From the NCBI GenBank assembly GCA_026983795.1, contig JALSTI010000127.1, positions 1 through 59,518 on the forward strand: 59,518 nucleotides of DNA. Direction: 5' to 3'. The position numbers and the translations under genes are program-made. How positions within the stretch are numbered: position 1 is the first letter of the stretch; each line of letters begins with the position of its first letter. This DNA comes from Melioribacteraceae bacterium (GTDB taxonomy: Bacteria; Bacteroidota; Ignavibacteria; Ignavibacteriales; Melioribacteraceae). Under the pieces are notes generated by a model. It ran no database searches. It was not told the DNA's origin and worked only from the letters and a program-made list of their open reading frames with translations. Shown here piece by piece: positions 18,078-38,641 of this stretch.

Positions 18078-18150
18078 AGCCATCTAGCGGACTCGAACCG
18101 CTGACCTGCTCATTACGAGTGAGCTGCTCTACCAACTGAGCTAAGATGGC
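18078..18150 (-). tRNA. tRNA-Thr (anticodon CGT)
   Basis: Manual cloverleaf on reverse strand: GCCATCT-TA-GCTC-AGTTGGTA-GAGC-A-GCTCA-CTCGTAA-TGAGC-AGGTC-AGCGG-TTCGAGT-CCGCT-AGATGGC-T; 73 nt, perfect acceptor, anticodon and T stems. Confidence 0.97.
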
Positions 18151-35528: not shown

Positions 35529-36824
35529 TTAACCGGTTATATTAAGAAAATTATCATCAATAAACATTTTGCCATTATTTATAACGGCTATTGACTTTCC
35601 TGTCAGTAACCTTTTATCGAAAGGAGTGTTTTTAGATTTTGATTTAAATTTGTTCTTGTCAACAGTCCAAACCATATCCGAATCGAAAATAGTAAGATCG
35701 GCATTTTCATCTTCGGTAATTTGGGGAACGGGAACATTCAAAATTTTCCGCGGATTTACAGATAATTTCTCAACCAATTGCGAAATAGTTAAATGCCCTT
35801 TATGAACCAATTCTGTTATTGCCAAACCCAATTGTGTTTCCAGACCGATTATTCCGTTGGGGGCATTAATAAATTCCAAATCCTTTTCTTCAATTGAGTG
35901 GGGAGCGTGATCGCTTGCAATACAATCGATAGTTCCATCTTTTAAACCTTCTATTATTGCCAATACATCTTCTTTGGAACGCAAAGGCGGATTCATTTTA
36001 AAATTAGTATCAAAGGTTTTAAGCGAATCGTGAGTAAGCGTAAAATGATGAGGCGTAACTTCCGCCGTAACATTTATTCCTTTTTTCTTAGCCTGCCTTA
36101 CCATTTCCACAGAAGCTTTAGTGCTAATATGAGCAATATGAACCCGCGCTCCAACATATTCGGCTAATAGTATATCCCGCATAACTATTAAATCTTCCGA
36201 AACGCTTGGCAAAGGCGGCAATCCCAATTGCGTAGACACAACACTTTCGTTCATTGCTCCGCCAGCTAACGATTCATCTTCGCAATGCTCAATTACAAGT
36301 TTGTCATACATAGATGCATATTCCATTGCTTTACGTAATATTGCAGCGGTTTTAACCGCTACGCCGTCGTCCGAAAATGCCACGGCTCCGGCTTCCACCA
36401 TTTCCGCAATTGGAGCCAGACTCTCCCCTTTTCTTCCTAAAGTAACCGCTCCTATAGAATGAACATTAACCAAATGTCCGTTTGCTTTTTGATTTATAAA
36501 ATTTATCACTTCGGCTGAATCAATAGTTGGATTAGTATTAGGCATACAGGCTAATCCGGTAAAACCACCCGCCGCGGCGGCATTAGCTCCTGTAACAACG
36601 GTTTCTTCGTCTTCTCTGCCGGGTTCCCTTAAATGAACATGCATATCAAAGAGACCGGGAACAATAAATTTATTTTCAAAATCGTATATTTTAGCGCTTG
36701 AATATTCACCGGGTTTTATAGCCCCGATTTTCTTAATTATACCATTATCAATAAGTAAATCCAACTTTTGTTCAATATTTTGAGCAGGATTTATTACAAT
36801 TCCGCCTTTTAAGATGATTTGCAT
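35529..36824 (-). CDS. pyrC: Dihydroorotase
   Basis: GLFDMHVHLREPGREDEETV, MPNTNPTIDS, IASDHAPHSIEEK. Confidence 0.96.
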   Translation of the reverse strand: MQIILKGGIVINPAQNIEQKLDLLIDNGIIKKIGAIKPGEYSSAKIYDFENKFIVPGLFDMHVHLREPGREDEETVVTGANAAAAGGFTGLACMPNTNPTIDSAEVINFINQKANGHLVNVHSIGAVTLGRKGESLAPIAEMVEAGAVAFSDDGVAVKTAAILRKAMEYASMYDKLVIEHCEDESLAGGAMNESVVSTQLGLPPLPSVSEDLIVMRDILLAEYVGARVHIAHISTKASVEMVRQAKKKGINVTAEVTPHHFTLTHDSLKTFDTNFKMNPPLRSKEDVLAIIEGLKDGTIDCIASDHAPHSIEEKDLEFINAPNGIIGLETQLGLAITELVHKGHLTISQLVEKLSVNPRKILNVPVPQITEDENADLTIFDSDMVWTVDKNKFKSKSKNTPFDKRLLTGKSIAVINNGKMFIDDNFLNITG

Positions 36825-36860: not shown

Positions 36861-37781
36861 TCAATTAGCCGTACCAAGCAAATAAAGCACAGCCATTCTA
36901 ATTGCCACTCCGTTAGTAACCTGATTGAGTATAACTTGATAAGGACCATCGGCAACTTCGGAAGATAATTCAACTCCCCTGTTTATCGGTCCGGGATGAA
37001 GTATAAGTATATCTTTATTATTCCGTTCAATTCGTTCCGCAGTAATTCCAAAATAGTTATGATATTCTCTTAATGAAGGAATCGATATTCCCGCTTCCCT
37101 TTCCAATTGGATTCTAAGAACATTTATTACGTCATGTTCGGCAATTGCTTTATCCACATTATTGTAAATTTTAACTCCTAAACGCTCCAATTCTTTTGGA
37201 ATCATTGTTGCGGGACCGCAAACATTTACAGTAGCTCCCATAGTTTTTAACCCGTAAATATTAGATAAAGCCACGCGGCTGTGAGCAATATCTCCAATTA
37301 TACAAATTCTTAATCCTTCCAAAGAATTCAATTTTTCACGGATTGAATACATATCTAATAAAGCTTGAGTAGGATGTTCGTGCAAACCGTCGCCTGCATT
37401 AATTATATTTGCGTTTGATATCCGGGTTAAGTAATGAGGAACACCGGCTGAACTATGTCTAACAACAATCATATCAACTTTCATTGCTTCAATATTTTTA
37501 ACGGTATCTTTGAATGATTCACCTTTCGAAACGCTGCTTGTACCTTTGGAAAAATTAACTATATCGGCAGATAATCTTTTTTGAGCCAATTCAAACGAGA
37601 TTCTTGTTCTTGTTGAACTTTCGTAAAAAAGATTTACTATAGTTTTACCCTGTAATGTGGGTACTTTCTTAATCGGTCTGTCAAGTACTTCCCGGAATGT
37701 AGTTGCGGTATCTAAAATTAATTGAATATCTTCCTTGGGAACGCCATTTAAACCGAGTAAATGTGGAGTTGATAAAGCCAT
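36861..37781 (-). CDS. pyrB: Aspartate carbamoyltransferase catalytic subunit
   Basis: LFYESSTRTRISFELAQKRL, HPTQALLDMYSI, HPGPINRGVE. Confidence 0.97.
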   Translation of the reverse strand: MALSTPHLLGLNGVPKEDIQLILDTATTFREVLDRPIKKVPTLQGKTIVNLFYESSTRTRISFELAQKRLSADIVNFSKGTSSVSKGESFKDTVKNIEAMKVDMIVVRHSSAGVPHYLTRISNANIINAGDGLHEHPTQALLDMYSIREKLNSLEGLRICIIGDIAHSRVALSNIYGLKTMGATVNVCGPATMIPKELERLGVKIYNNVDKAIAEHDVINVLRIQLEREAGISIPSLREYHNYFGITAERIERNNKDILILHPGPINRGVELSSEVADGPYQVILNQVTNGVAIRMAVLYLLGTAN

Positions 37782-37789
37782 AAAATATC

Positions 37790-38332
37790 CTATTCTGATA
37801 TATCGACTAAATAGACGGCATCCTCACCGTCAATTTCTTTCATTTTAACTTTAATTTCTTCATTAATGGAAGTAGGAATATTTTTCCCCACAAAATCGGC
37901 TTTAATTGGCATTTCGCGGTGACCTCTATCGATTAAAACACAAAGTTGAATTGTTCTTGGTCTTCCCAAATCCATTAAAGCATCCAAAGCGGCTCGTGCG
38001 GTTCTTCCCGAAAACAGTACATCGTCAATAAGTATAATATCTCTGTCATGAATATCAAAAGTGATATTTGTTACCGAAACTTCGGGTTGTTTTAGCCGTG
38101 TCCGGAAATCGTCTCGGTATAAAGTGACATCCAAAATACCCAGTTTAGGTCCGGAACCGTCAATTTCTTTTATTTTATTTTGAATTCTCTTCGCAATAAA
38201 TTCGCCCCGGGTTCTCATACCGATTAAAATTATATTTTCCGAACCTTTATTCCGTTCAAGAATTTCGTGGGAAAGCCTTGTAATAGTCCTTTCCAGTCCT
38301 TTTGCGTCAATTATTTCTGCTTTAATTTTCAT
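37790..38332 (-). CDS. pyrR: PyrR bifunctional regulator / uracil phosphoribosyltransferase
   Basis: PRTase motif DIILIDDVLFSGRTARAALDALMDLGRPRTIQLCVLIDRGHREMPI. Confidence 0.96.
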   Translation of the reverse strand: MKIKAEIIDAKGLERTITRLSHEILERNKGSENIILIGMRTRGEFIAKRIQNKIKEIDGSGPKLGILDVTLYRDDFRTRLKQPEVSVTNITFDIHDRDIILIDDVLFSGRTARAALDALMDLGRPRTIQLCVLIDRGHREMPIKADFVGKNIPTSINEEIKVKMKEIDGEDAVYLVDISE

Positions 38333-38340
38333 AATAATTT

Positions 38341-38377
38341 AAAAAAAATCCTCATTGACTATCGTCGCAGAGGTTTT
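38341..38377 (-). terminator. Terminator-like hairpin immediately upstream of pyrR (candidate attenuator)
   Basis: Minus-strand RNA AAAAACCUC-UGCGACGAUAGUCAAU-GAGGAUUUUUUU; CCUC/GAGG plus inner GAC/GUC and flanking A/U pairs, U7 run ending 8 nt before the pyrR ATG. Confidence 0.55.
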
Positions 38378-38399
38378 TATAATCTTTTTTGTTTTCCAT

Positions 38400-38430
38400 T
38401 CCTTCTTTATCTCGCCGGATAAAATTAAAG
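38400..38430 (-). promoter_or_regulatory. PyrR binding-loop (anti-antiterminator)-like RNA hairpin in the pyrR leader
   Basis: Minus-strand RNA CCUU-UAAU-UUUAUC-[CGGCGA]-GAUAAA-G-AAGG: hexaloop fits CNGNGA, core UCCNGNGAG, flanks CCUUUAA...GAAGGA. Confidence 0.75.
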
Positions 38431-38641
38431 GTTAATTTTAGTTGAACTAAAACTACAAAAAAATAATTTAGATGAAAAGAAAAATATCAAGGATTTTAAA
38501 ATATACAGATGATTATCAGCGAGGCTGTTTCACAAATTTATATTTAGCAAAGAGAAGTTGTAAAACTTTCCAAAAAGTTTAGCATTTTAATGTGCAAAAG
38601 AAGTCCGGTATTTTCAGGTTACTTCAGTCGATTTTTTACAT

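What the first reader, a model, noticed from the sequence alone, without database searches (positions are those of the whole stretch)
38333..38430. PyrR-type attenuation leader upstream of pyrR-pyrB-pyrC in a non-Firmicute
The minus-strand leader RNA reads AACCUUUAAUUUUAUCCGGCGAGAUAAAGAAGGAAUGG. It folds as CCUU / UAAU bulge / UUUAUC-[CGGCGA]-GAUAAA / G / AAGG. The hexaloop is CNGNGA and the core is UCCNGNGAG, flanked by CCUUUAA and GAAGGA, which closely resembles the Bacillus PyrR binding loop as I recall it. About 22 nt further on, a hairpin (CCUC...GAGG, inner GAC/GUC) is followed by a U7 run just before the pyrR start. PyrR RNA-mediated control is best known in Firmicutes, so this suggests it also operates here. 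I did not find a convincing antiterminator pairing. The U7 run ends only 8 nt before the ATG, so translational control is also possible.
Basis: partly seen in the sequence, partly recalled or inferred. Interest (0 to 1): 0.75.

Follow-up and report, generated by a model that had tools for sequence, protein, structure and literature searches.

The report
Leader-ORF-coupled PyrR attenuator in Ignavibacteria
The pyrimidine genes of this Ignavibacteria-type bacterium (Bacteroidota side, not a Firmicute) are preceded by a genuine PyrR-binding RNA hairpin, and where Bacillus uses a folding 'antiterminator' RNA this lineage appears to use a tiny leader reading frame whose translation would keep the terminator open.

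Summary
Window 38401-38431 (minus) is a PyrR binding loop: Rfam RF00515 matches full length at 37.5 bits (E 0.001), though below its 54-bit cut-off. The 30 best hits in relatives all lie just upstream of pyrR. All 35 genomes searched in the window's family and 21 of 25 others in its order carry it. Nine of ten stem pairs show changes on both sides; the terminator hairpin also covaries. A start codon lies 0-10 nt after the loop in 74 of 78 leaders (ATG in 66; shuffles average 14-22, maximum 33). In frame, 0 of 64 ATG-started ORFs stop before reaching the terminator's edge, against 33 and 22 of 64 in the other two frames. In the window this is MENKKDYKNLCDDSQ*, ending inside the terminator. Best model: PyrR-UMP on the loop blocks leader translation and the terminator forms; when PyrR is off, the translating ribosome keeps it open. 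As I recall, this was proposed in 1997 for Thermus ZO5; I could not read that paper here. Expression and binding are untested.

The parts
38401..38431 (-). PyrR binding loop (anti-antiterminator type hairpin, hexaloop CGGCGA)
   Evidence: Rfam RF00515 37.5 bits; clade model R1 55.3 bits, E 1.3e-7, next best in the genome E 2.6; covariation
38352..38399 (-). leader ORF, MENKKDYKNLCDDSQ*, start codon 1 nt after the loop's AAGG, stop inside the 3' arm of the terminator
   Evidence: translation; ORF statistics over 78 leaders
38350..38373 (-). terminator hairpin CCUC..GAC-GAUA-GUC..GAGG
   Evidence: fold; covariation across 74 leaders
38341..38348 (-). U8 tract of the intrinsic terminator
   Evidence: sequence
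38448..38455 (-). candidate Bacteroidota-type -7 element TAGTTTTA (7 of 8 matches to TAnnTTTG); would start the RNA roughly at 38441, about 10 nt before the loop
   Evidence: the exact motif lies upstream of the loop in 38 of 77 leaders against 6.7 expected; the window itself has one mismatch
37790..38332 (-). pyrR
   Evidence: NCBIfam NF003549 E 1.9e-71; 49% identical to a Bacillus PyrR
36861..37781 (-). pyrB, aspartate carbamoyltransferase catalytic subunit
   Evidence: NCBIfam NF002032 E 1.2e-119
35529..36824 (-). pyrC, dihydroorotase
   Evidence: NCBIfam TIGR00857 E 1e-130

Best explanation
This is the autoregulatory leader of the pyrRBC operon: a PyrR-controlled transcription attenuator in which translation of a short leader ORF takes the place of the antiterminator. 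Shown by sequence: a PyrR binding loop near the expected RNA 5' end; a start codon directly after its 3' arm; an open frame that reaches or enters a covarying terminator hairpin; then the pyrR start. Inferred: when UMP is high, PyrR-UMP holds the loop and covers the ribosome-loading region of the leader ORF, so the leader is not translated, the terminator folds and pyrRBC is off. When UMP is low, PyrR leaves, a ribosome melts the loop and translates the leader; at its end it sits on or inside the terminator, so RNA polymerase reads through. The peptide sequence is not conserved, so the act of translation, not the product, is what matters. In some members the leader stop overlaps the pyrR start (ATGA), which could add translational coupling.
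For: Binding loop. Loop and PyrR travel together: G041 and G043 are order members with neither, and inside the class even PyrR genomes missed by the model have the loop (L232-L235). Leader ORF: ATG within 0-10 nt of the loop in 66/78 (74/78 with GTG/TTG), shuffled mean 14 or 22, maximum 33. Frame 0 never stops 15 nt or more before the terminator (0/64), frames +1 and +2 do so in 33 and 22 of 64; dereplicated set 0/56 against 26 and 19. The start position varies (0-10 nt), so ATG is not part of the RNA motif. The same ORF occurs in other families of the class, f13, f24, f14 and most of f19. No antiterminator: the best duplex of the terminator 5' arm with upstream RNA averages -7.9 kcal/mol (shuffled -7.1, terminator -12.5), while six Firmicute control sites reach -11 to -17. 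None of those six has an ATG 0-10 nt after the loop; two have GTG. Terminator covaries: the pair next to CCTC/GRGG is CG 18, GC 15, TA 11, AT 10 among 74.
Against: No transcript, ribosome profiling or PyrR-RNA binding data. The loop's AAGG is only 1-4 nt from many of the leader ATGs, too close for a normal Shine-Dalgarno, so how the leader initiates is unclear. Four of 78 leaders have no start codon within 10 nt (L006, L008, L081, L089) and two have no recognisable terminator (L062, L082). The window itself is below the Rfam gathering score.
Confidence: 0.75

Rival explanations
1. Mainly translational control: the hairpin next to pyrR hides its ribosome-binding site (terminator 3' arm GAGG about 11 nt before the ATG), and leader translation or PyrR decides whether pyrR is translated by coupling; termination is secondary.
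For: GRGG lies exactly 11 nt before the pyrR ATG in 43 of about 67 leaders; 12 of 78 leader ORFs end 4 nt past the A of the pyrR ATG, i.e. in ATGA; families f7 and f10 have the loop but no clear terminator next to pyrR.
Against: A run of U directly follows a covarying hairpin in nearly all leaders, the hallmark of an intrinsic terminator. In the window the GAGG is 17 nt from the ATG, and Shine-Dalgarno signals are weak in window genes (14 of 42 against 11.5 shuffled).
Confidence: 0.14
2. Classical Bacillus mechanism with an antiterminator that overlaps both the binding loop and the terminator.
For: Same protein, same loop, same terminator arrangement; family f5 of the same class has duplexes up to -18 kcal/mol that would serve as antiterminators (L176).
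Against: In the window's order the A-rich spacer (56% A) has no antiterminator pairing beyond shuffled expectation (mean rank 0.38), and the Rfam middle hairpin is absent.
Confidence: 0.06
3. UTP-sensing attenuation of the enterobacterial pyrBI type: RNA polymerase pausing couples it to the leader ribosome, and PyrR acts only as a uracil phosphoribosyltransferase.
For: A leader ORF running into a terminator is the pyrBI design (established knowledge).
Against: The PyrR loop is conserved with compensatory changes and is lost together with PyrR; the spacer is A-rich, not a U-rich pause tract.
Confidence: 0.04

Closest known systems
Thermus strain ZO5 pyr operon leader (Van de Casteele et al. 1997, J Bacteriol; recalled, not held in the library)
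   Same: As I recall: PyrR homologue, pyrR-pyrB-pyrC cluster, proposed attenuation in which a translating ribosome rather than an antiterminator keeps the terminator from forming
   Different: A different phylum and, as I recall, a proposal from one locus; here about 78 leaders of one order plus other families of its class support it statistically
Bacillus subtilis PyrR attenuators / Rfam RF00515
   Same: Loop with CNGNGA hexaloop, two stems, a U-tailed terminator before pyr genes, PyrR 49% identical to a Bacillus one
   Different: No antiterminator and no middle hairpin; a leader ORF instead; one site per genome, where the B. velezensis control has three
Enterobacterial pyrBI leader-peptide attenuation (general knowledge)
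   Same: A leader ORF running into the terminator, so that translation prevents termination
   Different: Here there is a PyrR loop and no U-rich pause region
Mycobacterial PyrR translational repression (general knowledge)
   Same: PyrR loop overlapping a ribosome-loading site
   Different: Here the site blocked would be a leader ORF followed by a terminator

Membership tests
PyrR binding loop (as in Rfam RF00515) | hairpin with two stems, 5'-side internal bulge and CNGNGA hexaloop | tested here: met
   a few relatives have a 5-nt loop
PyrR binding loop (as in Rfam RF00515) | score at or above Rfam's curated cut-off of 54 bits for the whole 115-position attenuator | tested here: not met
   37.5 bits in the window; 1 of 58 relatives reaches it, at 55.1; the missing score lies largely in the absent middle region
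PyrR binding loop (as in Rfam RF00515) | lies upstream of pyr genes in genomes that encode PyrR | tested here: met
   30/30 best loci; PyrR present
PyrR binding loop (as in Rfam RF00515) | UMP-stimulated PyrR binding | not testable with these tools
   needs a gel shift or filter binding
Bacillus-type PyrR attenuator | antiterminator mutually exclusive with loop and terminator | tested here: not met
   mean -7.9 against shuffled -7.1 kcal/mol; Firmicute controls -11 to -17
Translation-coupled PyrR attenuator (Thermus type) | leader ORF starting at the loop and reaching the terminator | tested here: met
   window ORF
Translation-coupled PyrR attenuator (Thermus type) | leader translation prevents termination | not testable with these tools
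   needs reporter or term-seq experiments
pyrBI-type UTP attenuation | U-rich RNA polymerase pause tract in the leader ORF | tested here: not met
   spacer is 56% A, 23% U

The most novel reading that the evidence does not exclude
A whole bacterial class uses PyrR as a switch on leader translation, and related families have moved between three designs on one conserved binding loop: leader ORF plus terminator (window's order, f13, f24, most f19), antiterminator-like pairing (parts of f5), and loop without a clear terminator next to pyrR (f7, f10), giving a natural series for how protein-controlled attenuators evolve.
Probability: 0.45. Interest if true: 0.6.

Novelty: new member of a known kind. 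Interest (0 to 1): 0.45.

Why it matters
It extends PyrR RNA control to Ignavibacteria (and, by the same loop upstream of pyrR, to Calditrichota, KSB1, LCP-89 and Zixibacteria MAGs), where Rfam's cut-off misses it in nearly every genome searched. It also gives the translation-coupled mode, otherwise recalled as a proposal for Thermus, broad comparative support and clear point-mutation tests. A clade model finds the window's site at E about 1e-7 where the public model gives 0.002, so pyrimidine regulation in these uncultured groups can be annotated.

Tried and rejected
Antiterminator pairing: scanned against shuffles, not above chance in the order. Additional PyrR sites in the genome (a regulon): none; the next R1 hit is at E 2.6. 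Leader ATG as the true pyrR start: rejected, because most leader ORFs stop before or within the terminator or run out of frame with pyrR. Sigma-70 promoter scan: nothing convincing; the best match is on the other strand. The pattern-based terminator scan missed the hairpin, probably because of its internal loop. Exact search for the 16S 3' end in the own assembly found nothing, so the anti-SD was not checked. Literature for PyrR in Bacteroidetes or Ignavibacteria: nothing relevant held; the key Thermus, Bacillus and mycobacterial papers are not held.

Full report
What is there. The genes are pyrR, pyrB and pyrC by curated families. PyrR is closest by sequence to solved PyrR proteins and 49% identical to that of Bacillus velezensis. 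Nearest named relatives of the pyrR gene are Melioribacteraceae and other Ignavibacteriales MAGs.

The binding loop. A whole-window Rfam scan at curated cut-offs reports only a tRNA. A permissive scan of the leader gives PyrR RF00515 at 37.5 bits, E 0.001, over the full model; the model's middle part is mostly skipped, which is probably why it falls short of 54 bits. The same family has a match at E <= 10 in 57 of 58 relatives, over the cut-off in one. A permissive threshold finds chance hits too, but the 30 best loci all sit immediately upstream of a pyrR gene, which chance would not give. In 70 aligned loops the ten pairs are standard in 96.4% of cells, 9 of 10 pairs change on both sides (shuffled mean 3.5), and slid versions drop to 50-59%. 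A clade model, R1, finds the window at E 1.3e-7 and no second credible site in the genome, and one site per genome in 36 of 39 relatives.

Range. With R1, 35 of 35 genomes of the window's family and 21 of 25 others of the order have it, plus several other families of the class. In a draw of 398 genomes of the phylum all 43 hits were in the same class. PyrR itself is in 121 of 199 genomes of the phylum, but 14 pyrR upstream regions from other classes showed no loop, while four from the same class that the model had missed all did. Two order members without the loop, G041 and G043, have no PyrR match either. The loop also precedes pyrR in Calditrichota, KSB1, LCP-89 and Zixibacteria MAGs.

The leader ORF. 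Reading the leaders side by side shows a start codon just after the loop. Among 78 leaders, 66 have ATG within 0-10 nt of AAGG and 74 have ATG, GTG or TTG; shuffled spacers give 14 (mononucleotide) or 22 (dinucleotide) ATGs on average, at most 33. Position varies, so this is not a fixed letter of the RNA motif; codon 2 is AAA in 31 of 66. Of 64 ATG-started ORFs with a located terminator, none stops 15 nt or more before it, 18 stop within 14 nt, and 46 stop inside or beyond it. The other two frames of the same DNA stop early in 33 and 22 of 64. Dereplication at 85% similarity gives 0/56 against 26 and 19 (all). The window's ORF is MENKKDYKNLCDDSQ* with its stop inside the terminator's 3' arm. 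In 12 leaders the stop is the TGA of ATGA at the pyrR start. The peptides are not conserved.

No antiterminator. In six Firmicute sites, from Bacillus, Lactobacillus, Paenibacillus and Listeria records, the terminator's 5' arm pairs with upstream RNA at -11 to -17 kcal/mol, in several cases with the loop's 3' side. In the window's order the mean is -7.9 against -7.1 for shuffled RNA, with a terminator of about -12.5. The terminator is real by covariation: the pair next to CCTC/GRGG takes all four Watson-Crick forms (CG 18, GC 15, TA 11, AT 10 of 74; 59 standard against 28.6 expected), and the inner three pairs are fully complementary in 53 of 74.

Mechanism. The simplest reading is that PyrR-UMP on the loop blocks loading of a ribosome on the leader, so the terminator forms; without it, the ribosome reaches the terminator and read-through follows. 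The parts are shown; the behaviour is inferred. From memory, this is what Van de Casteele and colleagues proposed for Thermus ZO5 in 1997; that paper is not held. A 2013 survey of RNA motifs across 24 bacterial groups classed the PyrR motif as moderately distributed (PMC3766115), so non-Firmicute occurrence is not itself new. The lineage, and the comparative support for the translation-coupled form, appear to be.

Variation in the class. Families f13, f24, f14 and most of f19 have the leader ORF; f5 is mixed, some members having long spacers and strong antiterminator-like duplexes (L176, -18.2 kcal/mol, 0 of 60 shuffles as low); f7 has the ORF but no clear terminator; f10 has neither.

Promoter. 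The exact motif TAnnTTTG occurs upstream of the loop in 38 of 77 leaders (6.7 expected), mostly 15-30 nt before it, placing the RNA 5' end shortly before the loop. The window has a one-mismatch copy at 38455-38448.

Verdict. A real PyrR-controlled leader, correctly spotted. A new member of a known kind, with good comparative support and cheap decisive tests.

Noticed in passing
L173, L198-L203, L218, L219 (family f10 of the class): Downstream of the PyrR loop lies a conserved CCTCAC(A) complementary to the loop's own TGTGAGG, with no leader ATG and no clear terminator by pyrR; a possible loop-masking (anti-binding) element of another design.
   Followed up: partly
L165, L166, L167 and L178 (families f24, f14): The PyrR leader begins directly after what reads as the 3' end of a tRNA gene, suggesting co-transcription of pyrRBC with a tRNA.
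   Followed up: no
L096, L101, L105, L107, L108, L110: pyrR follows directly on what looks like a coding sequence resembling the end of cinA, with no PyrR loop, in more distant Bacteroidetes/Ignavibacteria MAGs.
   Followed up: no
L176 and other f5 leaders: Antiterminator-like pairing between the terminator 5' arm and the loop's 3' strand, as in Bacillus, within the same class as the leader-ORF form.
   Followed up: partly
L039, L048, L008, L082: Pentaloop variants (e.g. CGAGA instead of CNGNGA) of the PyrR loop.
   Followed up: no
window 18078-18150: tRNA gene on the minus strand, the only Rfam hit in the window at curated cut-offs.
   Followed up: no
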